A DNA stretch of 64,000 nucleotides from Globodera rostochiensis (Eukaryota; Nematoda; Chromadorea; Rhabditida; Heteroderidae): the NCBI GenBank assembly GCA_018350325.1, contig JAEVLN010000006.1, positions 1,263,193-1,327,192 of the forward strand, written 5' to 3'. How positions within the stretch are numbered: the stretch's first letter is position 1; each line of letters begins with the position of its first letter. Under the pieces are notes generated by a model, which was not told the DNA's origin, did not search any database, and worked only from the letters and a program-made list of their open reading frames with translations. Positions 5,801-51,928 of this stretch are shown one piece after another. A program made the translations under genes and the position numbers.

Positions 5801-6259
5801 TAAAAATTTGGATGCAAATTTCTTAACAAATTAAGATAAAAATTCAAAATTTTCTCCGGCGGCGTCTATCGGCAGTGCCGATTCGGCACCGCCACCCACC
5901 TCGCCCCCCTAAAAGCTTAAAATAGACAGAAGGCCGCTGAAAAAAGAAATCCTTCAAAATTTTTAAAAATAAATACAATTCAAAAATATTTATTAAAATT
6001 AATTTTTTATTTCAAAGTTAGGCAATTTCACCATAAATTTAATTTAAATCAAACAAATGTTAACACGTAAAAAATGAAAGTAAAAATCATGGCATTAAAT
6101 CATTTTTCATAATATTTAATAAAAATTAATACAAACAGAAAAAACTGCACGGATTGGACGGTATCGAAGCCAAACTGAAAGTTTGCCACCTGCAACCATT
6201 TAACAATTAAAATATGGGATTATTCATTAAATATTTGTCATTTAGGTTGAAAATGGCAG
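5801..6259. other. Non-coding AT-rich stretch
   Basis: It holds one copy of the dispersed GC-rich hairpin (5858-5893, ggcaccgcc type). Otherwise it is low-complexity AT-rich DNA with no exon that I can support. Confidence 0.45.
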
Positions 6260-6690
6260 CATTTGCACCCTTCCGTTCATCTCTTCCTTCCCTACTCCTC
6301 CCTTCTCCCTCTTCCTCCATTCCGTTTATCTCTTCCTCCCCTCCCCCTCTCTTCCTTTCCTCTTTTCCGTTCTTCTCTTCTCTTCCGTTCATCTCTTCCT
6401 TCCCCCCCCCCCCTCCCTCTCTTCCTTCCCTCTTTTCGTCCCTTCCGTTCATCTCTTCCTTCCCCCCCCCCCCTCCCTCTCTTCCTCCCCTCTTTTCGTC
6501 CCTTCCGTTCATCTCTTCCTTCCCCACTCCTTCCTTCTCCTTCTTCCTCCTTTCTTCATCTCTTCCTCTCCCCCCCACTCCCCTCCCCTCTCCCTTCCGC
6601 TCTTCTTTTCCTTAACCCCTCCCTCCCTCCCCTCTCCCTCATTCTGTCCGTCACCCCCCACCCCCCCCCCCCCCTCCTCTTCTTTTTCTT
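6260..6690. repeat. Pyrimidine-rich low-complexity tract with ~72-bp tandem units
   Basis: The plus strand is nearly pure C/T. A unit containing ccgttcatctcttccttccc recurs at about 6274, 6384, 6448 and 6506, and the tract ends in a C run near 6655-6675. The long open frames here on both strands (Ser/Pro-rich and Gly/Arg/Glu-rich) are by-products of composition. Confidence 0.8.
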
Positions 6691-7263: not shown

Positions 7264-8325
7264 GGAATGAAGTGCAAAGCTCATCAGCTACTGGCCTTAT
7301 CCAAGTGTTCTGTGGTCAAATACTGCCTGATAGTTGGAATATTTTAGAATACCAAACGAAACCAGCTTTATCGAATATAACTCGGCCAATATTGAAGATA
7401 GGAAATCGAAAAACATATCTTAGATGCAGCTAAGAAGTGGTAATACAATGACGACAAATGGCTAACAAACCAAGCACGCATTTTCAAGTTATGATTTTTC
7501 AAGTTACCAAGATTGCCTAATGAACAGTTTGTTAATGAAGTGAAAAGCTCATCTGCTACTGGCCTTATCCAAGTGTTCTGTGGTCAAATACTGCCTGATA
7601 GTTGGAATATTTTAGAATACCAAACGCAACCTGCTTTATCGAATATAACTCGGCCAATATTGAAGATAGGAAATCGAAAAACATATCTTAGATGCAGCTA
7701 AGAAGTGGTAATACAATGACGACAAATGGCTAACAAACCAAGCACGCATTTTCAAGTTATGAATTTTCAAGTTACCAAGAATGCCTAATGAACAGTTTGT
7801 TAATTAAGTGAAAAGCTCATCAGCTACTGGCCTTATCCAAGTGTTCTGTGGTCAAATACTGCCTGATAGTTGGAATATTTTAGAATACCAAACGCAACCA
7901 GCTTTATCGAATATAAGACGACCAATATTGAAGATAGGAAATCGAAAAACATATCTTAGATGCAGCTAAGAAGTGGTAATACAATGACGACAAATAGCCA
8001 ACAAACCAAGCACGCATTCTCAAGTTATGAATTTTCAAGTTACCAAGATTGCCTAATGAACAGTTTGTTAATGAAGTGAAAAGCTCATCTTCTACTGGCC
8101 TTATCCAAGTGTTCTGTGGTCAAATACTGCCTGATAGTTGGAATATTTTAGAATACCAAACGAAACCAGCTTTATCGAATAACTCGGCCAATATTGAAGA
8201 TAGGAAATCGAAAAACATATCTTAGATGCAGCTAAGAAGTGGTAATACAATGACGACAAATGGCTAACAAACCAAGCACGCATTTTCAAGTTATGAATTT
8301 TCAAGTTACCAAGATTGCCTGGGGT
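7264..8325. repeat. 268-bp satellite, four tandem copies
   Basis: The segment cttatccaagtgttctg recurs at 7295, 7563, 7831 and 8100, giving spacings of 268, 268 and 269 bp. Copies differ by a few substitutions and small indels (for example cgaatataactcgg, cgaatataagacg and cgaataactcgg). Scattered open frames do not persist from copy to copy, so this is a non-coding satellite. Confidence 0.9.
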
Positions 8326-8588: not shown

Positions 8589-8886
8589 TGACATAAGCTC
8601 ACTCTGGACTGCTCTCCTGGTCCCACATTTGTACACGGTTCGGGATAATACCGTCTTTATCCGGGAGATATATGTGGGGCACAAAAGGGAGGTACAGCTT
8701 CCCCGATTCGAGCGGGGAAGTAAGGTTCACATATTGGCCAATGTGTGTGTAGAATGAATTGGGTCGGGAACAGAGGTGAGAGTTGAGAGGAGGGAGGGAC
8801 CGCCCCTTTGGGATTAACGAGATGGGCGACAATGATCGATGGGCGCCCCAGGGCAAAGAATGAGTGTGATTAGATTGTGTGTGTCA
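8589..8886 (-). repeat. 3' LTR of the gypsy-type element
   Basis: It is 298 bp long, from TGACATAAGC to TGTGTGTCA on the plus strand, and appears identical to 20735-21032. It contains a perfect 8-bp-stem hairpin at 8698-8720 (cttccccg, loop attcgag, cggggaag). The 85-codon minus-strand frame in it occurs in both LTRs and is probably chance. Confidence 0.95.
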
Positions 8887-8899
8887 TCCCACTCCCCAG
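8887..8899 (-). other. Polypurine tract of the gypsy-type element
   Basis: On the minus strand the bases just before the 3' LTR read CTGGGGAGTGGGA, a purine run at the position expected for plus-strand priming. Confidence 0.7.
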
Positions 8900-9075
8900 A
8901 AAATTGTCGTCCTCGACATTATTTACAATGCATAATGAAAAAAAAGGGAAAATAGGGTAATATGTTGCATTTTTTGTTTGTTTTGTGTTTTATATTTTTT
9001 ATTTTATTTATTTTAATTTTTTGTTATAAAAAGTTGAATAAAAAGGAAAAAAAAATTGCAACATTTCACATCTAA

Positions 9076-12000
9076 TTATGCCCAACCAGCCATCTTAGAA
9101 TAATCTTCCGCTGATTGTGACGTTCCTGGCCCCCATTCATCGATCTGATCGCGCCAATTTCCGCGTCCTCCTCTTCCTGCTCCATTTCCGCGCCATTGTC
9201 CGCGTCCTCTCAGTCCGCCTCGCGTCTTCCAACGACTATCGTGTCCGAACCACGAATAGCCAAATGACTCATTTGCATTTCGCAAATAATTTTCCCCGTG
9301 AATTGCTCCTCTCTTCTCTCTCTTTTCCTTCAATCCGAAAAGTTTCTCTATCGATCGCATAGCCAATTGTGCTTCGTCCGCCGCCTGCGAGGCCTTTTCT
9401 CTAACATTTAGCAAACGATCAATTATTTCCTTCACTTCATTTGGATTTTGTTCGTGCTCGCTCTTCAAAAAGAGTTTCCTCTCTTCCCCTGGCGAATTTC
9501 CGAGTGCCGTCGGAAATGTCGGCGGTGTTCTGCCCAAAAACATTAACCGGTTTCTTTCTTCCATTTCATATTTCGGGATGTCCAATTCACTTTTGACTGT
9601 TTGCCATTTTCGTTTTTTTCCTTCTGGGGGTATGGAGTCCGCTTCTTTTTCCTTTATATCACTTTCGGCAGAGCGTATTTCATTCTTGATCAGTCGAGCG
9701 GCGTCCGTTGGTTTTTCTCCTTTTTTCGTGTGTTGCATTCTTTCGAATTCTGTTCTTGACTTTGATTTATTAAGCGTGGATTCCCAAAAACTTTTCGCTT
9801 CCACCTCAGCTCCCTTTGGTGGTGAATTAAAAAGCAATTCTTCATATTCAATATCCAAAATCACTTCATCCTCAATATTTTGGCTTCTTTTTTCAACTTC
9901 CTTTTGTGCAGCTGTCGTCATTCTCGTTTCATTTTCGGTCTCTTTCCGATCTTCTTTCTGTTCTGCTTTCTTTACTTCGTCGTTTTTGGCTCTCTTTTCG
10001 TTTTCCTTTTTCATTTTGGTCAGTTCACGTCGTAGTGCGTCGACTTCGTCAATCAATTTTTGCTGTGATGGATTGATTTCTTCTTTTTTCTCAATTATTG
10101 GCTGATTTTCGACCGATATTGTCTCTTCTCCGGCCTTCTTTTCCATCTTTTGGCGATCGGATGTGCTCATTCTGGAATCATTTTGATTTTTATTGCCATT
10201 AATTCGATTTTTAAGACCACTTTTCTTTATTTTATGTTTATTTGCACTTTGTTTCTTTTTGCTTTTCTCTGCACTTTCGTCATTTTCACTGTTCTTTTCC
10301 TCCGCTTTTTCCAGATTATCACACTTAATGAAATCCATATTATTTTGACCAGATATAACTACGCTTATGAATATGTGAGCACTATTTCCATTGTCCTCAA
10401 GACTTTCTTCCTGTTCTTTTTCTGACTCCATTTCCTTTTGTGTGATGGAGATTTCAGGGATTTGGTGTATTGAATAGTTTTGTTCTGTATTACCCCTCAA
10501 TGGCTCCCAGTAAGTTTCTTCAAATTCTTCCGTTCTGATTTCCCATCTTTCTCCTAATAATAACTGTGGGACAACTCCCAGGATAATTCGGTTTGACTCA
10601 TTAGATATAAAGATTTCAAAACTTTCGCCAAATAACCAAGCAGTAATATAACTCTCGCCATCAACATTTTCAGAAATTTCCCAATGTTCTTTGATAATAT
10701 TTTCCGGAATTAACGAAATTATGGGGATTGTCACCGTATTCGGCCAACTTGTATATACTAACACAATTTGTTCGTCGAGTAAAATTCGAGTTGTGGTACA
10801 TAAATTTTCAACTTCATTATTATTAAATGGTGGTATTATATATTCAAGTAAGTGTTCCTTTTCACTTTCTATGTTATTCCGTACAAATGCGACCATTGCT
10901 CCTTTTTTTTCTTCAGTGTTATTTTTAATTTCGAATTCTGTTACTGAATTTCTTTCCTTATTGTAATTTGTTGTATTTATTTGTTCATTTTTATCATTTA
11001 TTTCAGAGCTTTCGCTTAATTCTTCTGCTTCTTCTTGTTCCAAATTTATGTCTTCCACATATTTTTCGTAGCTCAAAGGTTCGTCTGATGGTCTTAAAGG
11101 TAATACGGCCGAGCCGTGGAAGGTTTTTACTTTTTCTTGGTGAACTTTTTTCAATTTTCCTTTGCCGTCTAACGACTGTAGGATAAGATTTCTTTTTTCT
11201 TTTTCAATGCCTACACATCGGAATGGTCCTGTCCAGCGCTGGTCGAATTTGTGCTTTAAAACTTCTTTCTTTAAGAGCACCAAATCCCCCACTTCAAATT
11301 CACGTTCCACAGCGTTCCTTTTTTGATCATTCATTTCTCTGTCTTTTTCTTGGGCACGGAGTATTTCCTCCTTTACCAATTTCCATGCCTTAGTGGCTTT
11401 TTCCGAGTGTTTTTTTGTATATACTGAAATGTCAGTACTGAAATCTTCTATTGATGGGAGCTTAAGTAATCTATCGGTTGGCATACGTGGATGGCGCAAA
11501 TGTAAAATGAAAAATGGTGATTGTTTTGTGGCCGTGTGGATAGATGAATTATATGCGAAAAGCGCGTGTGACAAAATTTCGTCCCAGTTATTGCCCTTTT
11601 CGTTTACTAGCTGGGATATTATGTTTGCCATTGTTCGCATTGAGCCTTCGGCCATGCCGTTTGCTTGTTGGTGGTAAGCGGTTGATGTTTGGTGCTCAAA
11701 TCCATATATTTTTGATAAATTATTGAATATTTCCGATGTGAACTGACGTCCTTGATCAGTTACTACGATTTCTGGTATTGAGTGTTGGTGAATGACAATT
11801 TCAACAAATGTTTCCGATACCATTTCTGCTCTTTGATTTGGAATTGCCTTAGCCATTACCCATTTTGAAAAACTGTCAATTGCCAAAAAAATGTAAACAT
11901 TTCCCCGATCAGTTTCTTTGAGTGGTCCCATCAAGTCACAGTGCACTCTCTGAAACGGTTCTTCCGTTGGTTTAATTGGTAAGCTTGGTGCGGATTTCGA

Positions 12001-15000
12001 TTGCCCAGGTTGAATTTTTCTCAACTGGCATGATTCACATGCTTCTACTAATAATCGCACATCTTCCTTCATTCCCGTCCAAAAGAATCGGTTTCTGATT
12101 TCCGGCCATGTTTTTTCAAATCCGAAATGGCCCTGGTTGTGAATCATGTCGAAAATTTCCTTCCTTATTTGGTACGGAATGATTAATTTTGGTTTTTCTG
12201 TATTTTCCTTTCCTTTTTGGTAATAAATTGCCCCATTAATTAGAATGTAGTCCTGGGACACATTTTTCCATTTTAGTACATTTTCCGGGTATTTACCGGT
12301 TTTTAAGATATAAAATATTTTAGCCAATTCTTTTACTTTCTTTTGGGCTTGGATTATATCTATGAGTATAATTTTCACTTTTGGTGTTTGAGTTTCGGTT
12401 GGATTTGATTCGTTGTCACTCGCATTATTTTTGGCACTCGAAATTTTATTGTGAAGTCCAATTTTGCATTTTGATTCCTTTTTTGCTTTCATAATTCGTT
12501 CGGATAAGTCTTCTACCTCGTCTTCATTCTCAATGCCTGGTATGTTGTACCTGGACAAAAAATCTGCGGCCACATTCTTTTTCCCGGGGCGATAAATTAT
12601 TTCCAAATCGAAGCTTTGCAACGTCATTTGATATTTTTCAAGCCTTCCCTTCAATTCTTTGGCTTTCATCATTCCGGTTAGGGCGCTACAATCGGTGATA
12701 ACTTTTGTGAGGCCTGAGCCTACAATATAAGGGGAGAATTCTTTTACGGCATATACCAATGCCAATGCTTCCCTTTCAATCGATGGGTAATTGGATTCGT
12801 GTCGGTTCAATGCTCTAGAGGCAAAGGCCACTGGGCCATCCTGCAACAATATTGCACCGATTGCACGTTTTGATGCATCACATTCAATCGTAAACGGTTT
12901 GCCAAACCGGGGGGATCTTAAAACCGGGGCTGATGTAAGCATTTTCTTGAGAGTTTGGAATGCCTCTTCCTGTTCTTTTCCCCAATTTTCTTTGATTTTC
13001 CCTTCGAATTTATCTTGAGTTAGGGTCTGTAATGGCCTTGCAATGTGCGCAAATCCTTTTATAAAGCGTCGAAAGTATGTGAGGGCGCCAAGGAGAGATT
13101 TTAATTCCGTTAATGATTTAGGGGCACTAAAATTTTGTACTACTTCAATTTGTTTCGGGTCCATTCGGACTCCTTTTTCGCTCAGTAAAAATCCCAGATA
13201 GCGGATTTCCGCCATTCCCCAATGGCATTTTTCAATTTTTAGCTTAAGTCCAACTTCTTTAAGCAGTCTCAAAAAATTTTCGATGTCTTTAAGATGGCTT
13301 TCCTCTGTTTCACTGCCAATAATTATGTCGTCCAAGTAAATTAACATAGCGGCTGTCAGCCTTCTTCGGATTGAGTTCATCACCCGTTGAAAGGTGTCCG
13401 GGGCCGCTGTCAAGCCAAATGGCATTGTTATAAATTCGAAAATGCCCAAATGTGAAATAAATGCCGTCTTTTCAATGTCTTCGATTGCCATGGGGATTTG
13501 CATGAATCCCTGTTGTAAGTCCATACAGGTATAGTACTTTTTTGAGCCCATTAGGTCCAAAAGTTCCTGTATGTTTGGTAGGTGGAAAACTCGTTTTTTT
13601 GTTATTTTATTTAGTGCCCGGTAATCAATGGCAAAACGCCATGATTTTTTGTCTGCTTTTGGGACCATTACAATTGGCGAGGCAAATTCAGACTCCGATT
13701 CTCTTATTATTTCTTGATCGAGCATTAGTTTTACCTGCTTCTCAATTTCTTTCTGTATTTCGGGCGGATACCGATATGGCCGTAAATGGAATGGTAAGGA
13801 ATCTGGGATCAGATCAATTTTGTGTACAATCGGACCATTATATTTTCCAATTTTTTCGTCATCGCCAACAAATGCGTCTGAGAATTCGTCTACCATTCTT
13901 TTGAGTTTTTGCTGGGTTGTTGACGTTAATTTAGTTCCTTCAAGATTTATTCTCTCCGATGGTTTTCTATTTTGTTTTTTTGTTGTTGGCAGTGCCGGCA
14001 AATTTTCATTCCAACGGGTTTCAGGTGGGATATAATCTTTTCCTGGTATTTCGTCGCCTGGTAGTGCATTTATTCTGACCTGCTCCAAGTCGGCCAAATG
14101 TGATTTTGCGTAAATTTTAATGGGCGCATTTCCGGCATTCATAATTTGCATCGTAACGCCTTTACTAGCACCTGGTGCTACCAACGTACGAGCGATAATG
14201 ACTCCTGGGTACTGATGTTTAGTCCCGTTAACAAGAAAATTTTGATTTTCCGGAAAGCTTTCTTCAATCTCTGCCATAACAACTGTTTCACTTCTTGGCT
14301 CAAGGATTTCGGTTTTGCTCATCATTACCCTTGGGGTTTTTGGACCCTCCGTTCCTATTACGGATACGATGTTTGTCCAAATTTTACCAATTCGCACTTT
14401 TCTTTCTCCCAAAGCAATGACGCCTTCCAGTTCCGTTAGTAATGGCAACCCAAAAAGTAATGGTCCGGGACAGTGTTTGTCCGGTGAAACTAATAATATG
14501 GCCTCCCATTCTCCGAAGTTTCTCGTTGTAGTCTCTTCAATTCGTATTTTTGCGTTTACTTTTCCCAAAATACGAATAGTTGAATCATTGGCTGCCGTTA
14601 AATTTGCGTTTTCTCCCAGTTCTATAATTTTTAATCCGGCTTTTCTCGCGGTGCTTTCTCGACAGTAAGATACGCTTGCGCATGAATCTACAAGTGCCGA
14701 AGTTAATAGTCCATTTAGGTGAACACGAATTATTGGCAGCCTTCTGGGGTCATTAGTAATTGTAGCAATTCTTCGCGGCGGGAGATAATCCAAAATATAG
14801 GCTTCTTGATCCAATGGGTCGGGTTCTGGTGCAGAAGGGACTGCTGCCACTCTGGTTTTTTGTCTTTTCATTCCGATAATTCCTCTAATCACTCGTGCTG
14901 CCACGGAACCTGCTCGAAAACCTGCAAAAATGATCACCCGGTATTTGATTCCAATGTAAACAATCAGCATCGTTAGTAGAATAATCGGGATTAATATTAA

Positions 15001-18000
15001 ACTCCAAGCGAGCCCTTTCAAACTATTCATTGCTTCCTTTGCTTTCTCGGGGATGCTCTTCATCATTTCCATCCAATCTCCGGTTTTTCCAAATACTACT
15101 CCGAGTGTTTCATTTGCTTCTTCTCGTATTAAACTAATAACATTGCTAATATTCGGTTTCTGCACGACTCTTAAAATCGCAGATGGTAAGATATTTATTT
15201 TGGAACGATATTCTATCATCGTTTCCTCCATTCTTATATTGTCGGATTTAAAAATTGCGCCTGCCTTTAGTACCAGTGGGTTTTGAACGTTTCGGTATTC
15301 GGTCCGAATTTTGTTAACATCTTCATTTAGTTTTTGGATTATTTCCTTTTGAGTTTCATTCCCGAACTTTTGCGATGTCTCCATTTCTGCACATTCTATC
15401 TTTTTCCCCAATATGCTTAAATCTCTCGTTCCAGGGCGAATAAAAAAAGTTGAATTTTCGACAAAAATAGGTGTCTCCTCATAACAATCCTCATCCATTC
15501 TTTTGTCCCAGAAAATTTTTTCCGGGGTGACTGGTACACAAAATCCAACTTCCAGGCCATTCCCTACCCATTTTGCAACTAAATCGTCACGGTTGAAAAT
15601 TTTCCGAATTCCCTCGTTTGGGTTGATTTGCAGAATTGCTTTGGCCAATTTCAGCTGAAAATTTGTATTCTCGCATGATTGTTTAAAAATTTGATCGTAT
15701 TCTCTTTTCCTAGCTTCGTTTAAACGATAAAGCGCATAATTCACACGGGTATTTAAATTTTTATTCTCTTGTCCCCCATCATTTCTCACTTTACTTTTTT
15801 CAACTTTTTCTAACCATCTCGCGTCAGGTGTAGTGACAGTCGTTCTCTTTGGTCTTTCCATTTCCAAAATGTCAACCTCTTCCTCCTCAACGTAAAGTAT
15901 TTCCTCCTCCTCATTAATCTCGTCGGATTCGGCTTCATTTTCTTCAAACTCTTGCTCCTCCTGTTCACTTTTTATTGCTTCTGAGTTGTTGATTAATTCT
16001 TTCTCTGTATTCTCAACATTGAATTTAAATGATTTTTGGACTTCCAGTATCGGGTGGACTTTTGGTTTAATCACGGAAATTTTAGCGGCTACCATTGGTT
16101 TTGTGCTTATAAATTTGGTTAAGTTTTGTGTATGTGGTTTGGCTGTTGTTGCCAGTTTAGGTGTTAAAATCGGATTTGTTTTTGGTGTGCTGATGTTTTC
16201 TGATTTGCTTGTTGTGGTCACTTTAGGTATTGTTGTCGGCATTTTTGGTTTTCGGGTGCTGGTGGCTATTTTTTGGGTTGGTTTGATTACTTTAGGTTCA
16301 GGAGTAGTCTGAATTTTTGTTGTTTTGGTTGCCATGACTTTTGTTGGGCTGGTGCTTGTGATCACTTTTGGAAATTGAGTGGTAGGTGGCGTACTCTTAG
16401 CCGGTGGCTTCCCTTCCGAAATGCCCTTTGACTTGTACAGTTGTTCTGTTCTGTCGGGTTTTAATTGGATTTGAGTGAAATGGGTTGGTTGTGCTTTTGT
16501 TTGTGGTGTTGTTACTTTAATTGTGTTTGTTGGCTCAATTTTTAAAATCGGCGATGGGGTTGTTGAAATTTTTGTGGTTGGCTTGGTTTGTGTGATGGTT
16601 TGAATAGTGGTGGAAATTTTTGTGGTTGGTTTCATTTGTGTGATGGGTTGCATAGTGGTAGACAGAATTGTCACCTTTGCAGGTGTTGGTGGTGTACTCC
16701 TTATTGCCGGTGGTATCGTGGTCGTTATGTTAACAATATTTTGTTTTTGAGTAGGGACCGTTTTTACCAAAGGAAATTTTTGTCCGGGTTTCTTTTTGGT
16801 CTGCCTTTCCTTTTTTGTCGGTTCCATTTTCACTATCACATCTCTTTTCGTTTTTTTCAAGGCGTTAATTACGATAAAAACGTCATTTGACATTTTATAT
16901 GCCTCTTCAGGGACCCCGATAATTCCTTCCCTGTCTTCGGGTTTATCTTTCTCAAAATAAAAAACACTCTGCTCACTTTCGACAATTATGGCATTTTCCG
17001 TGATTTCAGCCAAAAATTCTCCTACTGGCGAATGGGTTGCCCAATATATATCGTTGGGTTCGGGGATTTCCCAAATAAATGTTCTGCGTTGCCCTTCTTC
17101 CCATCCTTTGTAAGGATTTATTTTGTGACCGAACGAGGTAATTAAATAAAAATCAAGAATTCCTCCTTTGCCGACCTCAATAAAGTCGTTGACTGTGGTT
17201 TTACACAATTCGCCGGCCCAAGCATACGAAATTTTTTCCGGTTTTTCCGTTCCCCACAATTCTTCTCCCAATCTTTTCATTGACAAATCCATTTTTTCTT
17301 TGAATTTCCAGCATTCTTTATGACCTGTTCCTCGTACAATGCTTTCCTGGCTTTTCACCTCTTTCCATAGGAGAAGAAAACTTGTTGTGCATATTTTTGT
17401 TAATTTTTGGTAACAAACGTACACTGGAAACTGTTTTGGCAATCTTACTGGCAAAAATAGTGTCACTTTTCTTTCTGTTGCCTTTTGTTGTTTTTGAATG
17501 GTACATTCGGTAATGTTAGGCAAATTAATTGGGGTAGTGGGGACGCGGTTCGAGCATAATTGGTATTGTGCCTGAGCGTTTTCAAAGAAGAGACAAAAAA
17601 TCGTCGTAATTGTCAGAAATGTTAGGGTCGGAGTTGGCGAGCTTGATTTTCGGGTGGTATTTGTTCCTTCATTACCTACCATATTTATTCGATATCTTTG
17701 TCTCTCACTTCCTCTCCCTCTTTGGGGTGTCCGATTATACGGAATATTTCCTTGTTGTGGCCGAAATTCTCCATACCTCGGTGGGTGAGGTTGATGGAAA
17801 TGTCCATTAAAATTTCGTCTATGCCCAAGTGGGCAATTGTTTGAGTTTACCGGTCCAAATCCTCCAAAGTTCCTTTCTCTGTAATTTTGGTTACCTCTCC
17901 AGTAATTTCCTCGGCCATTTCCTCTGAAATTGCCTCTTCCTCGGTAATTTGAATTTCCTCTCCACACAGAATTTTCACTCTCTCGATTATTTATTTCATT

Positions 18001-18609
18001 TTTTGTTTTATTTTGCAATGAAATTGCGTTTATTTGGGCTTGCAGTTCAGCAATTTGGCTTTTCACTTCATCTCCCTTTTCCTCATTTTCCAGTTCTTCT
18101 TTTATCTGTAGGACTTTTTTTGTTTGTGCTATTGCTTCCGCAAGTGTTTTAGGTTTGTCCATGAAAAATAATTTCCGTTTCAGGTTCGTTGGCATCCCGT
18201 TTAAAAAGTAATGAATACTTTCATCTTCCCTTGCTTCTTTGGTATAATTTGGCGTCGGGGACGCTTGTTCCACCAATTCTCTGATCTTGTTGGCAAATTC
18301 CGTTACCGTTCCCCTGCCTAACGTTGCCTTTGCCAACATTTTCCGTGCCCAAACAGGGCCTTCTAGTTTCTTAGTCCTTTCCGTCATTTCGTCTGTTAGT
18401 TCTCGCCAAGTTTTCCGTTGGGCGTTTGGGATGTTTAAAAATATTTCTTTTGCTTCTCCTTCCAAAAATAATGGAAGAAAACGTACACAATCGGTAGGCA
18501 ACCAATTGGACGCTGTTGCAAGTATATTGAATTCCCTTAAAAAGGTGTGAAAATCACCTATCGCATCAAATTTCGGAATTTTTATTCCATGAGTAAATTT
18601 GTTGCGCCT
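9076..18609 (-). CDS. Gag / glycoprotein-like / Pol polyprotein
   Basis: The frame stays open for over 3,140 codons. Residues are counted from the first TTG at 18501, because no ATG begins the frame. 1-260: Gag, ending in an RGG-rich nucleic-acid-binding stretch with no CCHC knuckle. 290-310: hydrophobic signal-like segment (LTFLTITTIFCLFF, then AQAQ). 310-1160: cysteine-containing ectodomain-like region with a Thr/Pro/Lys mucin-like stretch (about 560-860) and a furin-type RPKR near 883. 1163-1186: membrane anchor. About 1255-1370: aspartic protease with LVDSCAS at its active site. 1520-1770: reverse transcriptase (YLDD near 1723). 1865-1990: RNase H. 2105-2300: integrase zinc finger and DDE core. 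2470-3141: extension with coiled coil, acidic/basic stretches and a second RGG box. Entry into the frame probably needs a -1 shift from ORF1. Confidence 0.9.
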   Translation of the reverse strand, partial: RRNKFTHGIKIPKFDAIGDFHTFLREFNILATASNWLPTDCVRFLPLFLEGEAKEIFLNIPNAQRKTWRELTDEMTERTKKLEGPVWARKMLAKATLGRGTVTEFANKIRELVEQASPTPNYTKEAREDESIHYFLNGMPTNLKRKLFFMDKPKTLAEAIAQTKKVLQIKEELENEEKGDEVKSQIAELQAQINAISLQNKTKNEINNRESENSVWRGNSNYRGRGNFRGNGRGNYWRGNQNYRERNFGGFGPVNSNNCPLGHRRNFNGHFHQPHPPRYGEFRPQQGNIPYNRTPQRGRGSERQRYRINMVGNEGTNTTRKSSSPTPTLTFLTITTIFCLFFENAQAQYQLCSNRVPTTPINLPNITECTIQKQQKATERKVTLFLPVRLPKQFPVYVCYQKLTKICTTSFLLLWKEVKSQESIVRGTGHKECWKFKEKMDLSMKRLGEELWGTEKPEKISYAWAGELCKTTVNDFIEVGKGGILDFYLITSFGHKINPYKGWEEGQRRTFIWEIPEPNDIYWATHSPVGEFLAEITENAIIVESEQSVFYFEKDKPEDREGIIGVPEEAYKMSNDVFIVINALKKTKRDVIVKMEPTKKERQTKKKPGQKFPLVKTVPTQKQNIVNITTTIPPAIRSTPPTPAKVTILSTTMQPITQMKPTTKISTTIQTITQTKPTTKISTTPSPILKIEPTNTIKVTTPQTKAQPTHFTQIQLKPDRTEQLYKSKGISEGKPPAKSTPPTTQFPKVITSTSPTKVMATKTTKIQTTPEPKVIKPTQKIATSTRKPKMPTTIPKVTTTSKSENISTPKTNPILTPKLATTAKPHTQNLTKFISTKPMVAAKISVIKPKVHPILEVQKSFKFNVENTEKELINNSEAIKSEQEEQEFEENEAESDEINEEEEILYVEEEEVDILEMERPKRTTVTTPDARWLEKVEKSKVRNDGGQENKNLNTRVNYALYRLNEARKREYDQIFKQSCENTNFQLKLAKAILQINPNEGIRKIFNRDDLVAKWVGNGLEVGFCVPVTPEKIFWDKRMDEDCYEETPIFVENSTFFIRPGTRDLSILGKKIECAEMETSQKFGNETQKEIIQKLNEDVNKIRTEYRNVQNPLVLKAGAIFKSDNIRMEETMIEYRSKINILPSAILRVVQKPNISNVISLIREEANETLGVVFGKTGDWMEMMKSIPEKAKEAMNSLKGLAWSLILIPIILLTMLIVYIGIKYRVIIFAGFRAGSVAARVIRGIIGMKRQKTRVAAVPSAPEPDPLDQEAYILDYLPPRRIATITNDPRRLPIIRVHLNGLLTSALVDSCASVSYCRESTARKAGLKIIELGENANLTAANDSTIRILGKVNAKIRIEETTTRNFGEWEAILLVSPDKHCPGPLLFGLPLLTELEGVIALGERKVRIGKIWTNIVSVIGTEGPKTPRVMMSKTEILEPRSETVVMAEIEESFPENQNFLVNGTKHQYPGVIIARTLVAPGASKGVTMQIMNAGNAPIKIYAKSHLADLEQVRINALPGDEIPGKDYIPPETRWNENLPALPTTKKQNRKPSERINLEGTKLTSTTQQKLKRMVDEFSDAFVGDDEKIGKYNGPIVHKIDLIPDSLPFHLRPYRYPPEIQKEIEKQVKLMLDQEIIRESESEFASPIVMVPKADKKSWRFAIDYRALNKITKKRVFHLPNIQELLDLMGSKKYYTCMDLQQGFMQIPMAIEDIEKTAFISHLGIFEFITMPFGLTAAPDTFQRVMNSIRRRLTAAMLIYLDDIIIGSETEESHLKDIENFLRLLKEVGLKLKIEKCHWGMAEIRYLGFLLSEKGVRMDPKQIEVVQNFSAPKSLTELKSLLGALTYFRRFIKGFAHIARPLQTLTQDKFEGKIKENWGKEQEEAFQTLKKMLTSAPVLRSPRFGKPFTIECDASKRAIGAILLQDGPVAFASRALNRHESNYPSIEREALALVYAVKEFSPYIVGSGLTKVITDCSALTGMMKAKELKGRLEKYQMTLQSFDLEIIYRPGKKNVAADFLSRYNIPGIENEDEVEDLSERIMKAKKESKCKIGLHNKISSAKNNASDNESNPTETQTPKVKIILIDIIQAQKKVKELAKIFYILKTGKYPENVLKWKNVSQDYILINGAIYYQKGKENTEKPKLIIPYQIRKEIFDMIHNQGHFGFEKTWPEIRNRFFWTGMKEDVRLLVEACESCQLRKIQPGQSKSAPSLPIKPTEEPFQRVHCDLMGPLKETDRGNVYIFLAIDSFSKWVMAKAIPNQRAEMVSETFVEIVIHQHSIPEIVVTDQGRQFTSEIFNNLSKIYGFEHQTSTAYHQQANGMAEGSMRTMANIISQLVNEKGNNWDEILSHALFAYNSSIHTATKQSPFFILHLRHPRMPTDRLLKLPSIEDFSTDISVYTKKHSEKATKAWKLVKEEILRAQEKDREMNDQKRNAVEREFEVGDLVLLKKEVLKHKFDQRWTGPFRCVGIEKEKRNLILQSLDGKGKLKKVHQEKVKTFHGSAVLPLRPSDEPLSYEKYVEDINLEQEEAEELSESSEINDKNEQINTTNYNKERNSVTEFEIKNNTEEKKGAMVAFVRNNIESEKEHLLEYIIPPFNNNEVENLCTTTRILLDEQIVLVYTSWPNTVTIPIISLIPENIIKEHWEISENVDGESYITAWLFGESFEIFISNESNRIILGVVPQLLLGERWEIRTEEFEETYWEPLRGNTEQNYSIHQIPEISITQKEMESEKEQEESLEDNGNSAHIFISVVISGQNNMDFIKCDNLEKAEEKNSENDESAEKSKKKQSANKHKIKKSGLKNRINGNKNQNDSRMSTSDRQKMEKKAGEETISVENQPIIEKKEEINPSQQKLIDEVDALRRELTKMKKENEKRAKNDEVKKAEQKEDRKETENETRMTTAAQKEVEKRSQNIEDEVILDIEYEELLFNSPPKGAEVEAKSFWESTLNKSKSRTEFERMQHTKKGEKPTDAARLIKNEIRSAESDIKEKEADSIPPEGKKRKWQTVKSELDIPKYEMEERNRLMFLGRTPPTFPTALGNSPGEERKLFLKSEHEQNPNEVKEIIDRLLNVREKASQAADEAQLAMRSIEKLFGLKEKREKRGAIHGENYLRNANESFGYSWFGHDSRWKTRGGLRGRGQWRGNGAGRGGRGNWRDQIDEWGPGTSQSAEDYSKMAGWA

Positions 18610-18692
18610 TTATTGGCCCATTTATCCTCTAAATCTTTCACTTTTTCTCGGAGCGCTGTGAATTTCGTTTCCAAATCCTCTGGGTCCGGCAT
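18582..18692 (-). CDS. ORF1, short Gag N-terminus ahead of a -1 frameshift
   Basis: This frame is open from about 18865. The first ATG is at 18692 (MPDPEDLETKFTALREKVKD) and the stop is at 18582-18584. The peptide is charged and probably a coiled coil. The frame carries the slippery heptamer A AAT TTA 12 bases before its stop. The -1 frame continues directly into the conserved Gag motif IPKFDAIGDFHTFLREF. The upstream open region has no ATG, so the true N-terminus may start here or come from a spliced leader exon that I cannot identify. Confidence 0.6.
   Translation of the reverse strand: MPDPEDLETKFTALREKVKDLEDKWANKGATNLLME
18594..18600 (-). promoter_or_regulatory. Candidate -1 ribosomal frameshift site (A AAT TTA)
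   Basis: Read in the ORF1 frame, the minus strand gives ACA AAT TTA, so the heptamer A AAT TTA matches X XXY YYZ. It is the slippery sequence known from the avian retrovirus gag-pol junction. Five bases downstream a small hairpin can form (GGAAT, loop AAAA, ATTCC). It lies within the short overlap of ORF1 and the long ORF (18582-18609). Confidence 0.65.
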
Positions 18693-18865
18693 TTTATTTG
18701 CCTGTGGTTTTTGTTTTTCTTTAATTAACTTTTTCCTTTCTCTTTCTGTGTTCCTTTCTTCCCTTTTTCGTTTACTTTCTTCTTTGCCCTCAAATCTTCT
18801 TGCCAAATATTCGGGGGTATGAGTCTGGTCAATTTTCTTTACTTTTGTTTGACCGTAATTTTAAT

Positions 18866-19912
18866 TCTTCTTTTTAGCCCAAATTATTCTTTTAACTTAA
18901 TTCACCTCCAAAAATGCGACAATTTCCTTCCCCGAGTACGTCCGTTACCGGCTCAACTGGTCTCGATGGATGTTGTAGGGTGTTGGTGTGTTTGGTAGAT
19001 CAAGCCTTTCGTTGGATGTCAATTGATTTTTAGAATTTATTTATTTGTTTGTTGTTTTTTTTTTGTTGCTGAATTTATTTATTTATATTAATTACGACTA
19101 ATATGGATTAGAATTATCAAGTTTTTGTTATTTAACTTAATAACACATTTTCAGGTTGGATCTGAAGTTTTAAGTGACAGATTTTGAGAAAGCTTATAGC
19201 GTTCGAAGTTTTCTGAGGTAGTCTGTTGATGGTCCGTTGGTGCGAAAAATGAAACAAAATGCCTAGGGCGTCATCGAATTGCCTTTAACCTTTATTCTCT
19301 CGCCGTTCGTTTTCACTGATAACTCCTGATTTAATTAATTGCTTTATTCGCGGCTCTTTACGTCGGAGCTCTCGAAACTTATTTGATTAATACTTCTTTT
19401 TCGTAATTGTTGGCCCTCGGGATCGGATCCTTTTTTCCTCGCAGTTGGGGCCTGATCATTAGATTTATTGCTCTTAATCTTTACTCCTTTTTCTCAACAT
19501 TCCTTCATTCGACGTTTGCCCACCATCGCCCCTCAGACTAACATCGGCGCCTGATTTCAGTCATCGGCGAAATATTCGGCATTTGTTGCTTGTTTCTCAA
19601 CACTTTGGACGAAAGGTTTTGCTGTCAGAGCAGCCATTCCAAAATAAATTGGTCTTTAGTTGAACGATCACAGGTTAATTCAAAATTTGTCTTCTCCAAA
19701 AGAAAATGATGTCAAAGAAAGTAAATTCATAATATCCGATTAGCATTACAATAGAGAGGAGGAGGGGGTGGGAAGGGTGTGGAGACGATGAAAGAAATTT
19801 GACCAGCCATTTGAAGGTTTATTCTTACACCAAGTCATTCATTCTCAGTTGTTACCACTTTTCCTTTTGTCCATTAAATTAAATTTCGTCCGTTCTCAGT
19901 TTTTCAAAAAGA
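18866..19912. other. Leader of the gypsy-type element, proximal part
   Basis: This is untranslated in the retroelement sense: both minus-strand frames leading to Gag are closed upstream. Near 19800-19905 the plus strand has a T-rich run with two acceptor-like sites (ttctcag) just ahead of the antisense ORF, suggesting a 5' UTR on the opposite strand. Confidence 0.5.
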
Positions 19913-20308
19913 ATGAGCGTGTGGGAAATCCAAGAAGCTTGTCGGATTGTCTGCCGTTCCCCAAATATTTGCTGGGAACCTACTTCCTACACTGATCCGC
20001 AAATTTGTTTGCCTCCGGGCACCAATCCGAACAACTTTAAAAATTTTGTCTCATTGACGGACTACTCCTTCATGTTTGTTCTTCTCATGGTTTTCGTTGG
20101 AGGGCTTGCAATTGGCGTAATCATCTCGGCGTTATTTCTTGTTGTCAAGAAGAATTGCAACTGTTACTTTCGTCACAACTCGCGTTGTCAGCGAAAGAAC
20201 AACCGTTCCACCAATTCTCAAACTTTGGCACACTTGGCCGGCCGATCTCGCCAGCCTCCGCCTGTTCATACTCCGTTAATTGTCCGTTTGCCTCAAGATG
20301 TTTGTTAA
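19913..20308 (+). CDS. Antisense single-pass membrane protein, 131 aa
   Basis: The ORF runs opposite to the retrotransposon inside its leader. It starts with ATG at 19913 and ends with TAA at 20306-20308. Residues 1-50 form a short N-terminal domain with four cysteines (C10, C14, C20, C32) and no signal peptide. About 55-78 is a strong membrane segment (VLLMVFVGGLAIGVIISALF). A KKNCNC juxtamembrane motif follows, then a basic tail of about 50 residues ending QPPPVHTPLIVRLPQDVC. The layout suggests an N-out/C-in protein, and the juxtamembrane cysteines could be palmitoylated. I recognise no family. Downstream, 20376-20432 encodes an 18-residue peptide starting MGNSVGHSRR, and a good splice donor (gtaagttt) lies at 20438. 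It may be an accessory gene of the element or a captured host gene. Confidence 0.6.
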   Translation: MSVWEIQEACRIVCRSPNICWEPTSYTDPQICLPPGTNPNNFKNFVSLTDYSFMFVLLMVFVGGLAIGVIISALFLVVKKNCNCYFRHNSRCQRKNNRSTNSQTLAHLAGRSRQPPPVHTPLIVRLPQDVC

Positions 20309-20715
20309 TCACTACATTTTCTTTTTAACGAAACTCTTGCCTTTTGGGACTTCGACTTTTTTTTCCGGCTCTGTTATGGGCAATTCCGTCGGCCATTCTC
20401 GTCGCATCGAGCCCAATCATTCCTTTGTTTGAATGTGGTAAGTTTCGTTTCGGTCTTTTCTTTGACTTCAACAACACTTTACCGCTTAAGCCTTTCTTTG
20501 CCATCATTCAACGAAAGTGCGTCATTGTTATTTTTCTTTACCGGGCGATGTTATGATAATTTAATTAACTTTTTTGGATTATTTTTGTTCATTTATTTTA
20601 TTATTACTTTTTGATGGGTCTTTTATGATTTCGATCATTTCAAATATTACGTTAATTAATTTATTTATTTTTTTTAATAAAATAATGATTATGATAATTT
20701 TTACAAGTTGAAATT
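20309..20715. other. Leader of the gypsy-type element, distal part
   Basis: This stretch holds the short MGNSVGHSRR peptide frame (20376-20432, plus strand) and the donor-like gtaagt at 20438. An AT-rich region follows (20560-20700). I see no other coding support. Confidence 0.4.
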
Positions 20716-20734
20716 CCCCGTGGTAGGACCTCCA
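20716..20734 (-). other. Primer-binding site, tRNA-Gln type
   Basis: Directly inside the 5' LTR the minus strand reads TGGAGGTCCTACCACGGGG. TGGAGGTCC is complementary to the 3' end of eukaryotic tRNA-Gln (GGACCT-CCA). The match weakens after about 12 bases when compared with the tRNA sequence as I remember it. Confidence 0.65.
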
Positions 20735-21032
20735 TGACATAAGCTCACTCTGGACTGCTCTCCTGGTCCCACATTTGTACACGGTTCGGGATAATACCGT
20801 CTTTATCCGGGAGATATATGTGGGGCACAAAAGGGAGGTACAGCTTCCCCGATTCGAGCGGGGAAGTAAGGTTCACATATTGGCCAATGTGTGTGTAGAA
20901 TGAATTGGGTCGGGAACAGAGGTGAGAGTTGAGAGGAGGGAGGGACCGCCCCTTTGGGATTAACGAGATGGGCGACAATGATCGATGGGCGCCCCAGGGC
21001 AAAGAATGAGTGTGATTAGATTGTGTGTGTCA
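20735..21032 (-). repeat. 5' LTR of the gypsy-type element
   Basis: It is 298 bp long and appears identical to 8589-8886. It holds the promoter of the element in the minus-strand direction. Confidence 0.95.
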
Positions 21033-31608: not shown

Positions 31609-33447
31609 TTAAACCATCAAAAGCAACAGCGGTAGCAGCAGAACGACGATGCCGAAGGTGAAGCTGAGAGGCGTTGTGGGTCTGGCAGCACCAGTCTTTA
31701 TGTCAATTGGCGAAATGTGCAAGAATAAATATAAAAGTGTGACATATTGTGAAAGTCCTACATTTGGTCTGTCGAAGGGCAGAGGCGGGGGTGGTGGCGG
31801 AGGCGGGGACGACGGCGGGGACGGCGGCGGGGACGGCGGCGGGGGAGGCGGCGGGGGAGGCGGCGGGGACGGCGGCGGGGGAGGCGGCGGGGGAGGCGGC
31901 GGGGGCGGCGGCGGGGGAGGCGGCGGGGGCGGCGGCGGGGGAGGCGGCGGGGGCGGCGGCGGGGGAGGCGGCGGGGGCGGAGGCCACACTTTGTTCAATG
32001 CCGCTGGGATAGGCGTTTGCAGGTCGGTGTTGCGCGAGTTACAGTAATCATTGCCCGAGCAAACATCGTTGGCAGAATTGCATTGCATTGTGCCGTCCTT
32101 GCAATACAGTCTCAGCAAATCGTATCCGCATTTTGGTTGCCCAACTTCTCCACACCCACTGACAACAAAAATATCGTTTCCGGCATCTGAGAAGCAAGGG
32201 ATTTCAGACAAAATTGATACATATTTAGCTAGATTGAATAATCAAATCGAATTTTTTTTTTGGAATTATTGCCCGGGGGACTTTATGTCGTTCTACTAGT
32301 GGACCGTTTGTCCGGGGGACCTTTTGTCGTTCTCCTAGGGGATCGTTTGCCCGGGGGACTTTTTGTCGTTCTACTAGTAGACCGTTTGTCCGGGGGACCT
32401 TTTGTCGTTCTCCTAGGGGATCGTTTGCCTGGGGGACTTTTTGTCGTTCTACTAGTAGACCGTTTGTCCGGGGGACCTTTTGTCGTTCTCCTAGGGGATC
32501 GTTTGCCTGGGGGACTTTTTGTCGTTCTACTAGTGGACCGTTTGTCCGGGGGACCTTTTGTCCTTCTCCTAGGGGACCGTTTGTCCAGGGGACCTTTTGT
32601 CCTTCTCCTAGGGGACCGTTTGTCCGGGAGGCCTTTTGTCGTTCTCCAAGGGGAGAGTTTGCCCGGGGGACTTTTTGTCCTTCTCCTAGTGGACCGTTTG
32701 TCCGGGGGACCTTTTGTCGTTCTCTTAGGGGGCCGCGGTGTTTTCTGACTATTGTAGTTTAACTAAAAATTATGGAACAAATTTATCTCACTATCCGTGC
32801 AGCGGTGTGTGGTACAGTAAGCGTTGTTACACGAACGTTTCTCCGTATCTGACCCGTCGGGGCTAGAAACTTGTGCCCATAACGCTTGAACGTCTTGCCA
32901 AAGGCCTGCTGGTAGCATGCCACGGTAACGGATTCTACTGATGCACTTCATAGTCTGAGTCTGAGTCTTAGGACATCCACTTCCCGATTCAACGATAACT
33001 TAAAAACACAATTAATTGTTAAGTTTTATGCAGGGTGACCAGATTAAAAATGCAAAAAAATAGGTCAGCAACTGAAAATCAGTAAAATTTAGAATCAGCC
33101 TAGCAAAATCGGGCATAATTTTTGGGCGTAATGCCAAAACTTTATTAATCGTATTCTCGACATAAGAAAATTGGAATTTTTGAGAATTCTGCTTCACTTT
33201 TGAAGAGAAGGGCCGGCGGTCCCGGTAGGCCGCGGCCGAGAAATTTTTTGAATTTTTGACTCATTTTATAAGAGATCCAACCAAAATTTCAAAAATACGG
33301 TAAATATTTCCTTTTTGGAAGTTTTGTGAAAATTTCTAAATACACCCAAAAATCAGGATTCTTACTTCCAGGGCCACGAATGCAATATCCGGCTGCCAGT
33401 GCACAGAAATGCATAATAACGACGAAAGCGATCAGCAGAACGTTCAT
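31609..33447 (-). CDS. Secreted cysteine-rich protein with poly-proline stalk and GPI-type tail
   Basis: Three exons: 33366-33447, 32792-32998, 31609-32186. Phase-1 junctions match at both introns (A|TT and A|AT), giving about 288 residues. It begins with a signal peptide (MNVLLIAFVVIMHFCALAAG). Two cysteine-rich modules follow: SGSGCPK...MKC...CNNAYC in exon 2 and VSGCGEVGQPKC...MQCNSANDVCSGNDYC in exon 3. Next come a run of more than 50 prolines broken by serines, and a hydrophobic C-terminus (FGIVVLLLPLLLLMV) after small residues, as in GPI-anchored proteins. The two modules look like an exon duplication. It is probably exported and displayed on a surface; I recognise no named family. A MITE sits 12 bp upstream of the ATG, and intron 2 is mostly a 39-bp minisatellite. 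Confidence 0.65.
31783..31985. repeat. GGC/GGG trinucleotide-type tract coding for poly-proline
   Basis: The plus strand is an almost pure run of ggcggcgggggcggcgggggagg units; read on the minus strand it gives consecutive CCN proline codons. It is inside exon 3 of the gene above. Ala/Gly-rich frames on the other strand are by-products. Confidence 0.9.
32255..32748. repeat. 39-bp minisatellite, about 12 units
   Basis: The unit is roughly gaccgtttgtccgggggac plus cttttgtcgttctcctaggg. It alternates between two variants (ctactagtagacc and ctcctaggggatc), which gives a 78-bp higher-order period. Because 39 is a multiple of three, the plus strand stays open for 162 codons (RLSGGPFVVLLGDRLPGG type). 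It lies within intron 2 of the minus-strand gene 31609-33447. Confidence 0.9.
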
Positions 33448-51900: not shown

Positions 51901-51928
51901 CCAATTTTTGCTGGATTGGAGCCGACAT
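48911..51928 (-). CDS. BEL/Pao Gag-protease polyprotein fused to a membrane-segment tail
   Basis: It has 1005 residues from ATG at 51928. 1-160: coiled-coil-rich Gag head. About 175-330: DUF1759 core ([36 protein letters not shown]). About 440-500: three zinc knuckles ([40 protein letters not shown]). About 580-720: DUF1758 aspartic protease, with FIDPGSH where D-S/T-G-S is usual. 720-880: Lys/Ser/Thr-rich linker. About 890-912: a hydrophobic segment ([20 protein letters not shown]) followed by NNTSA, possibly the remnant of an Env start, then a basic end. RT, RNase H and integrase are absent, so pol was deleted in frame between protease and the tail. Zinc knuckles and LTRs suggest it can still be packaged. 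Confidence 0.85.

What the first reader, a model, noticed from the sequence alone, without database searches (positions are those of the whole stretch)
14900..17660. Glycoprotein-like region placed between Gag and protease in a gypsy-type element
In one open frame, Gag is followed by a signal-like hydrophobic segment (near 17570-17630). Then come about 850 residues of cysteine-containing, mucin-like sequence with a furin-type RPKR (15845-15856), and a membrane anchor (near 14945-15012), before protease-RT-RNaseH-IN begin. In the gypsy, errantivirus and Cer1-type elements I know, Env-like sequence follows integrase. The topology is self-consistent: an internal signal would send the middle into the ER lumen and the anchor would return Pol to the cytosol. 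It could be a Gag-Env-Pol polyprotein of an undescribed lineage.
Basis: partly seen in the sequence, partly recalled or inferred. Interest (0 to 1): 0.9.

Follow-up and report, generated by a model that had tools for sequence, protein, structure and literature searches.

The report
Virus-like jumping gene, envelope inside polyprotein
A retrovirus-like jumping gene in what is probably a plant-parasitic roundworm carries its envelope (cell-entry) protein in the middle of one giant protein, between the shell protein and the copying enzymes; several of its relatives keep that unusual order, so it looks like a working design and not an accident.

Summary
Window 8589-21032 (minus strand) is a recent LTR element: two identical 298-bp LTRs, 4-bp target duplication, one 3177-codon open frame. 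Between Gag and protease lie a signal-like segment, a Cys-bearing N domain, a Thr-rich stalk, RPKR, a fusion domain and a membrane anchor. The fusion domain matches Pfam PF24664 (Monjiviricetes fusion glycoprotein) at E=1.3e-13, above its cut-off. It is not a one-copy accident: Meloidogyne hapla and M. enterolobii polyproteins have the same domain before protease-RT-IN. In the window's own genome, 17 of 35 Env loci have a gypsy RT nearby, always downstream; 8 have DUF5641 (a BEL/Pao marker) nearby, always upstream; 10 have neither. One copy read in each of three further groups has an unbroken Gag-Env-Pol frame. Best reading: a Gag-Env-Pol polyprotein with flavivirus-like topology (inferred). 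A splicing model failed: its acceptor is absent in both relatives that hold the site. The order has one published precedent (planarian Burro, 2019), so this is a new variant of a known kind; ten paper searches showed no nematode case, but the most relevant survey was not held. Extra: a conserved antisense membrane-protein frame in the 5' leader.

The parts
20735..21032 (-). 5' LTR, 298 bp, begins TGACAC, ends TGTCA
   Evidence: 298/298 identical to the 3' LTR; flanked by CATG target duplication
8589..8886 (-). 3' LTR, 298 bp
   Evidence: 30 LTR matches listed in the genome including this pair, next best 93% and 91%
20722..20734 (-). primer binding site TGGAGGTCCTACC directly after the 5' LTR
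   Evidence: sequence; tRNA not identified
8887..8897 (-). polypurine tract GGGGAGTGGGA before the 3' LTR
   Evidence: sequence
9076..18609 (-). Gag-Env-Pol open frame, stop to stop, 3177 codons
17680..18609 (-). Gag (PF03732 at about 18480-18193) with RG-rich C-terminal part; the first about 36 codons with the ATG lie in another frame in this copy
17569..17631 (-). signal-like hydrophobic segment ending AQA before QYQLC
   Evidence: hydropathy; counterpart segments in Meloidogyne hapla and other groups
16852..17568 (-). Env N-terminal domain with six Cys
   Evidence: 67% identical in L009 and 73% in L010
15892..16854 (-). Thr/Pro/Lys-rich stalk (mucin-like), poorly conserved
   Evidence: composition; alignment; 24-base repeat array in the corresponding stretch of L009
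15844..15855 (-). furin-type RPKR (RRKR in Heterodera trifolii P0004 and in L009)
15382..15756 (-). class III type fusion domain, PF24664
   Evidence: E=1.3e-13, 50.3 bits against cut-off 27
14947..15015 (-). membrane anchor followed by a basic tail
   Evidence: hydropathy 2.73; the only confident helix in the model
14449..14727 (-). aspartic protease; active-site motif reads DSCA in 3 of 3 group A copies looked at
   Evidence: PF13650 E=2.7e-5
13189..13665 (-). reverse transcriptase PF00078
   Evidence: E=4.1e-32
12610..12906 (-). RNase H PF17917
   Evidence: E=1.1e-28
11671..12180 (-). integrase: PF17921 zinc-binding domain and PF00665 core
   Evidence: E=2.6e-18 and 1.3e-15
9076..11502 (-). 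long C-terminal extension after integrase ending in an RG-rich tail, no Pfam family over cut-off
   Evidence: 41-47% identical in the longer matches elsewhere in the genome
19883..20308 (+). antisense open frame in the 5' leader (ATG at 19913, 131 aa): Cys-bearing N half and one membrane segment
   Evidence: 13 protein-level matches in the genome, 7 of 13 with a stop inside; 8 of 13 beside element parts, all 8 antisense and 5' of them

Best explanation
It is the envelope gene of a Ty3/gypsy-type, retrovirus-like element, fused in frame between Gag and protease so that one translation product reads Gag-Env-Pol. Shown: the domain order, the open frame, the class III type fusion domain, the constraint on Env and the recurrence of the order. 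Inferred: the Env signal emerges after Gag is made, directs the ribosome to the ER, and the ectodomain is threaded into the lumen. Signal peptidase cuts after the AQA motif, leaving the signal as a C-terminal membrane anchor on Gag. The Env anchor stops transfer, so protease-RT-IN return to the cytosol and the protease later frees Gag and Pol. Furin cuts at RPKR and the Env trimer drives membrane fusion. The plan (capsid, signal, glycoprotein, anchor, protease and polymerase) works like a flavivirus polyprotein (recalled) and would put Gag, Env and Pol on one membrane in equal amounts.
For: Open frame through Gag-Env-Pol in the window and in L029, L030 and L032, each with Gag-like, PF24664, PR, RT, RH and IN matches in that order (below cut-off are PF24664, the Gag-like PNMA and PR in L029, PNMA and the rve core in L030). 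M. hapla P0006 begins with Gag (28% identity to the window's, E=1e-17) and then has Env, PR, RT, RH, IN; M. enterolobii P0007 begins inside Env and has the rest. 17 of 17 gypsy-linked Env loci have the RT downstream at 1.1-1.9 kb. A hydrophobic segment before and one after the Env ectodomain in six of six sequences at threshold 1.5, and none upstream of PR in the env-less relatives L034 and L035. At threshold 1.7 the number of such segments before PR is even (2 or 4) in five of six, as return to the cytosol needs. By eye four of the six signals end in AxA, VxG or AxG. No conserved splice acceptor; no NPGP motif in five sequences scanned. pN well below pS in Env, Gag, PR and RT.
Against: No RNA, protein or topology data. 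The window signal is weak (hydropathy 1.36; not counted at threshold 1.7), and at threshold 1.5 the even-number pattern fails in two of six. Equal amounts of Gag, Env and Pol would be unusual for a retroelement. The window copy has its Gag start in another frame and a DSCA protease motif. Structure models were too poor to test the fold (mean pLDDT 31 and 40), and a profile of the other groups' Envs matched no solved structure at E<=1. PF00606 (herpes gB) is below its cut-off. Synonymous sites are near saturation, so dN/dS cannot be given exactly for most pairs.
Confidence: 0.72

Rival explanations
1. Env lies in a regulated intron: unspliced RNA gives Gag-Env(-Pol), spliced RNA gives Gag-Pol.
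For: With a recalled nematode splice matrix, the best donor (17679) and best acceptor (14921) of the whole 12.4-kb element bracket Env; a weaker donor 4 bases downstream gives an in-frame join. In 5000 synonymous shuffles both scores were reached 43 times and the in-frame pair 85 times. L009 keeps a similar donor, GTAGGA.
Against: The acceptor AG is absent in both relatives that hold the site (L009, L011), and the donor is altered in L010. The acceptor alone arises in 1095 of 5000 shuffles. The best donor is out of frame with the acceptor. One copy in each of three further groups keeps one frame through Env; their splice sites were not examined.
Confidence: 0.1
2. Env is made separately by internal initiation or from a shorter mRNA (for example by spliced-leader addition) although it shares the frame with Gag and Pol.
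For: An in-frame ATG lies about 50 bases before the signal core (near 17682); Cer1 of C. elegans makes CERV from a spliced mRNA although part of it shares the polyprotein frame (PMC10309623, passages).
Against: No acceptor of good score just upstream of that ATG. Separate expression alone would not explain why no stop separates Gag, Env and Pol in the window, L029, L030 and L032.
Confidence: 0.2
3. The Env part is a captured, non-functional passenger.
For: Several copies have lost Pol or parts of Env (L010, L011, L012) and 10 of 35 Env loci have no Pol nearby.
Against: pN 0.12-0.21 against pS 0.73-0.84 in Env N and C pieces between the window and other copies; ten Cys columns invariant in 11 Envs of the other groups; the order kept in Meloidogyne and in this genome.
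Confidence: 0.04
4. A programmed -1 frameshift joins a short leader ORF to Gag in the window copy.
For: A canonical-looking slippery heptamer lies in the overlap of the two frames (motif recalled).
Against: In L009 and L011 the ATG and the rest of Gag are one frame, without the heptamer, so the window copy more likely carries a small lesion or an assembly error.
Confidence: 0.03

Closest known systems
Burro giant gypsy-like elements of planarians (PMC6431247, section 7 read)
   Same: Env homology in frame between Gag and protease inside one polyprotein; the authors call it the first such case; env hits fusion glycoproteins of arthropod and fish mononegaviruses.
   Different: Burro exceeds 30 kb and has BCL2, BIR, ankyrin and other domains; here 12.4 kb (8.9 kb for L032) and no such Pfam match; their env was linked by HHpred to gypsy Env, here Env matches PF24664. 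Whether the two Envs are homologous was not tested.
Anakin and other BEL/Pao elements with Jingchuvirales glycoprotein (PMC7642597, PMC10084718, passages)
   Same: Captured glycoprotein that appears to be of the same type; group D in this genome looks like this kind.
   Different: BEL/Pao backbone; by DUF5641 position group D has Env after Pol. Here a gypsy-type backbone with Env before Pol.
Atlas virus of hookworm (PMC9094657, passages)
   Same: Nematode element, single 2828-residue polyprotein with Env, no stops or introns.
   Different: BEL/Pao, order Gag-Pol-Env, class II phlebovirus-like Env.
Cer1 of C. elegans (PMC10309623, passages)
   Same: Nematode Ty3/gypsy element with Gag and Pol in one frame and a further ORF region after integrase.
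   Different: The 3' region belongs to CERV, no Env there or between Gag and Pol is described; PBS TGGGGGCCG (tRNA-Pro), not TGGAGGTCC.
Errantiviruses / insect gypsy
   Same: Ty3/gypsy-type Pol with an Env.
   Different: Env after integrase (recalled); PMC6431247 states that in other gypsy-like elements env is a separate ORF.

Membership tests
Ty3/gypsy (Metaviridae-type) LTR retrotransposon | Identical or near-identical LTRs with TG..CA and a 4-6 bp target duplication | tested here: met
   298/298, TG..CA, CATG
Ty3/gypsy (Metaviridae-type) LTR retrotransposon | Pol order PR-RT-RH-IN with rve after RNase H | tested here: met
Ty3/gypsy (Metaviridae-type) LTR retrotransposon | RT falls among Ty3/gypsy RTs | tested here: inconclusive
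   Tree of 34 RTs incl. plant Ty3/gypsy proteins, but no BEL or Copia outgroup was included
Monjiviricetes/Jingchuvirales-type fusion glycoprotein | PF24664 above gathering cut-off | tested here: met
   Window 50.3 bits vs 27. Of 11 Envs of other groups all 11 match at E<=1, best 4.1e-10; some, such as L029 (16.3) and L014 (17.7), are below the cut-off
Monjiviricetes/Jingchuvirales-type fusion glycoprotein | Class III fold | tested here: inconclusive
   Models of mean pLDDT 31 and 40; no fold search run on them; no PDB profile match at E<=1
Herpesvirus glycoprotein B | PF00606 above gathering cut-off | tested here: not met
   18.4 bits vs 43, 22.3 on the isolated fusion piece; the 6+4 Cys pattern is like gB (recalled), not a test
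Burro-type element (in-frame Env between Gag and Pol) | Env in frame between Gag and protease | tested here: met
Burro-type element (in-frame Env between Gag and Pol) | Giant size with BCL2/BIR/ankyrin modules | tested here: not met
   12.4 kb; no such Pfam match
Errantivirus | Env downstream of integrase | tested here: not met
   Env is upstream of PR; no glycoprotein family matched after IN
BEL/Pao with captured glycoprotein (Anakin, group D here) | BEL-type Pol with DUF5641 (marker recalled) | tested here: not met
   No DUF5641 match in the window element; 8 other Env loci have it, upstream of Env
Active retrovirus | Infectious particles | not testable with these tools
   -

The most novel reading that the evidence does not exclude
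A nematode branch of gypsy retroviruses has adopted a flavivirus-like polyprotein: the Env signal anchors Gag to the membrane in which Env folds, so capsid, fusogen and enzymes are delivered one-to-one. This plan arose or was kept in two RT lineages with related class III type fusogens, one of them with an added mucin-like stalk, while BEL elements of the same genome carry related fusogens behind Pol. The mucin-bearing group also has a conserved antisense gene for a small Cys-bearing membrane protein that works with, or regulates, Env.
Probability: 0.35. Interest if true: 0.85.

Novelty: new variant of a known kind. Interest (0 to 1): 0.7.

Why it matters
Retroviruses and most env-bearing retrotransposons place Env last and make it apart from Gag-Pol, usually from a spliced message (recalled). 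A repeatedly conserved Gag-Env-Pol frame suggests that another way of making cytosolic capsid and enzymes and a secreted fusogen from one RNA is evolutionarily stable, and it gives a direct test of how topology, stoichiometry and assembly can be solved without splicing. The contrast within one genome (gypsy-linked Env before RT at 17 of 17 loci; DUF5641-linked Env after Pol at 8 of 8) is a natural experiment on fusogen capture.

Tried and rejected
Alternative splicing around Env: attractive in the window but the acceptor is not conserved. Programmed -1 frameshift at the Gag start: not conserved. 2A-type separation: no NPGP in the five sequences scanned. Structure prediction of the window Env with four sequences and of its C-terminal part alone gave unusable models, so no fold search was run. 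Solved-structure searches: the window Env gave only chance-level hits at E>=1.4, nearly all DPP4 and one gB chain; the profile of other groups' Envs gave none at E<=1. IMG/VR scans found no relative of Env or of the PR-RT piece; tblastn of that piece against phages found none. A protein search restricted to the fusion-to-anchor part in polyprotein-sized proteins gave none of 1620 candidates at E<=0.001. Monophyly of the two Gag-Env-Pol RT lineages: not in the best tree but not rejected (p=0.098; the 14 rows include P0005, of which only a membrane segment before PR is seen), so one or two origins is open. An Env tree is not used: its BEL row was badly trimmed and the script ended in an error at its last test.

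Counting notes: the 35 Env loci were merged by hand from the 16 and 34 matches; the group letters A to G are mine, by identity and linkage. The rows were not typed in. No BEL reverse transcriptase was searched for: the BEL label rests on DUF5641 (recalled marker). The search tool scores only its best candidates, so counts are lower bounds. The splice matrix, slippery motif, signal-peptidase rule, gB cysteine pattern, flavivirus plan and errantivirus order are recalled.


Full report
What is there. The element lies on the minus strand at 8589-21032: two 298-bp LTRs that agree at 298 of 298 positions, TG..CA ends, a CATG target duplication, a primer binding site directly after the 5' LTR and a polypurine tract before the 3' LTR. 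One frame is open from 18609 to 9076 (3177 codons). In order it holds Gag (PF03732), the Env region, aspartic protease, RT, RNase H, integrase (zinc-binding and core domains) and a C-terminal extension of about 800 residues that ends in an RG-rich tail and has no Pfam match over cut-off.

The Env region. Residues 636-760 of the piece P0002 match PF24664, Monjiviricetes fusion glycoprotein, at E=1.3e-13 and 50.3 bits (cut-off 27); herpes gB PF00606 is seen weakly, at 18.4 bits of 43 (22.3 bits on the isolated fusion piece). Ten Cys fall six before and four after a Thr-rich stalk, a spacing that resembles gB (recalled). A gene model of Heterodera trifolii (P0004), the only hit among 7938 candidates, covers the part from within the N domain to just past the furin site at 41% identity in the search, 48% in the alignment, and keeps R(P/R)KR followed by TTVTTPDA. 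Profile comparison joins the window's C-terminal domain to the Envs of other groups with probability 96% and E=2.2e-9; the N domain aligns colinearly but only weakly (probability 4.5%, E=0.009).

The order recurs. A search with the anchor-to-protease region in polyprotein-sized proteins gave 12 of 7447 candidates at E<=0.001. The three best (E<1e-50) are P0006 (M. hapla, 2743 aa), P0007 (M. enterolobii, 2206 aa) and P0005 (unnamed source); the other nine are Pol proteins with weak scores (E 4e-6 to 8e-4), most of them from plants where named. P0006 begins with a relative of the window's Gag (28% identity, E=1e-17; no Pfam Gag match), then has a signal-like segment (265-281), Env with PF24664 (784-886; 24.3 bits, just below the cut-off 27), an anchor (1027-1043), PR, RT, RH and IN. 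P0007 begins inside Env and has PF24664 above cut-off before PR. P0005 has a membrane segment just before PR. In the window's own genome (92.6 Mb, 80 contigs) Env searches listed 16 and 34 matches, merged by hand into 35 loci. Of these, 17 have a gypsy RT on the same strand within 8 kb, always downstream at 1.1-1.9 kb; 8 have DUF5641 (a BEL/Pao marker, recalled), always upstream; 10 have neither. One locus of each of three other groups was read whole: single frames of 2727 (L029), 2550 (L030) and 2235 aa (L032), with Gag-like, Env, PR, RT, RH and IN matches in that order. PF24664 is above cut-off in L030 and L032 and below it in L029 (16.3 bits); the Gag-like PNMA match is below cut-off in L029 and L030, PR in L029, the rve core in L030. 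L032 is flanked by 487-bp terminal repeats that differ at one position; no LTR pair was found in the stretches held for L029 and L030. L031 has DUF5641 followed by the same type of Env (24.0 bits on that piece, over cut-off in the genome scan). Three gypsy loci with RT but no Env match (L033-L035) run from the N terminus to RT without a signal/anchor pair; one segment just over threshold lies inside the protease region of L035, and L033 has no Pfam-recognised Gag or PR. L009, another group A copy, is colinear with the window over Gag, Env N, Env C, PR and RT at 58, 67, 66, 72 and 94% identity, but its frame is broken in the stalk and again downstream.

Constraint. Between the window and L009, L010 and L011, pN is 0.12-0.21 in Env pieces and pS 0.73-0.84, close to saturation, so Env has been kept as a protein while the family diverged. 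Ten Cys columns are invariant in 11 Envs of the other groups.

How it may work. The frame, the lack of a conserved splice acceptor and the paired hydrophobic segments favour one polyprotein. An internal signal would open translocation after Gag, the Env anchor would close it, and Pol would be cytosolic. L014 and L029 (group B) have two further hydrophobic segments between the Env anchor and PR, 4 in all at threshold 1.7, which keeps the number even; the window's weak signal drops out at 1.7 (one segment left), and at threshold 1.5 two of the six sequences have odd numbers. The plan recalls flavivirus polyproteins (recalled). ER targeting, cleavage and fusion are inference.

What was tested against it. 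The window has its best-scoring donor and acceptor around Env, and 43 of 5000 synonymous shuffles do as well, but the acceptor is missing in L009 and L011, the two copies that hold the site; a similar donor is kept in L009 and altered in L010. The window's Gag start lies in another frame; in L009 and L011 it is one frame, so this copy has a small lesion or an assembly error there and not a conserved frameshift device. The protease motif reads DSCA in three of three group A copies read, against DTGA in M. hapla and DSGS in P0005; what this means for activity is unknown.

History. In a tree of 34 RT sequences group A (window, two more copies, both Meloidogyne proteins and P0005) is one clade (100/99), groups B, C and E another (100/100), and env-less group F joins B-C-E with modest support (82/86). 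Holding the 14 Gag-Env-Pol rows together costs 6.3 log units, p=0.098, so one origin with loss and two origins remain open.

Literature. The order is known once: Burro elements of planarians (PMC6431247; passages, section 7 read). Captured chuvirus glycoproteins in BEL/Pao elements of mosquitoes, and Jingchuvirales glycoprotein sequences in Nematoda flanked by simple repeats, are in PMC7642597 and PMC10084718 (passages). Atlas virus (PMC9094657, passages) and Cer1 (PMC10309623, passages) show single-frame nematode elements without this order. PMC12440569 was seen as outline, abstract and passages, PMC13172572 as passages. I found no report of Gag-Env-Pol in nematodes in the listings. Chary and Hayashi 2025, known only from a reference list and citations, could not be read and may bear on this.

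A second feature. In the 5' leader, on the other strand, lies an open frame of 131 aa (from 19913) with conserved Cys, a PPG.(N/D)PN motif and one membrane segment. It has 13 protein-level matches in the genome, 7 of them with a stop inside. Eight of the 13 lie beside element parts, 7 beside group A Env or C-terminal extension and 1 (C16) beside an RT of unassigned group; all 8 are antisense and 5' of those parts. For the other 5 no listed part lies within 14 kb. In pairs that differ, pN is 0.13-0.45 and pS 0.33-0.86. It looks like an antisense accessory membrane-protein gene; its function is unknown.

Host. The nearest named relatives are Heterodera and Meloidogyne proteins, so a tylenchid plant-parasitic nematode is likely (inference).

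Noticed in passing
window 19883-20308 (+): Antisense open frame in the element's 5' leader: small membrane protein with conserved Cys; 13 matches in the genome, 8 beside element parts, all 8 antisense and 5' of them; Pfam best hit Commissureless below cut-off.
   Followed up: partly
window 9076-11502 (-): About 800-residue extension after integrase, without Pfam family over cut-off, ending in an RG-rich tail like that of Gag; 41-47% identical in the longer matches elsewhere. Cer1 has its CERV part at the same place.
   Followed up: partly
window 14449-14727 (-): Protease active-site motif reads DSCA, shared by three group A copies, where Meloidogyne has DTGA.
   Followed up: partly
G000 loci C3:496203, C9:1354878, C12:6073020, C56:1438031, C14:405789, C66:45605, C17:587148, C16:507773: Env relatives preceded by DUF5641, so probably BEL/Pao elements with Env after Pol; frames up to 3520 aa.
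   Followed up: partly
L013 and L014 (G000 C67:2721500-2731000, C8:1797500-1807000): Gag-Env frames (1271 and 1365 aa), 92% identical in Env, without RT nearby; L014 ends in the start of PR. Possibly Pol-less derivatives.
   Followed up: partly
window 48911-51928 (-): Gag/protease-like frame with DUF1759 and DUF1758, probably of a BEL/Pao element (recalled markers).
   Followed up: no
window 7266-8320: About four tandem copies of a 268-bp unit close to the 3' LTR; a C/T-rich low-complexity tract lies further out at 6259-6642.
   Followed up: no
window 31609-32211 (-): Open frame with a long polyproline run and Cys-containing N part, no Pfam family.
   Followed up: no
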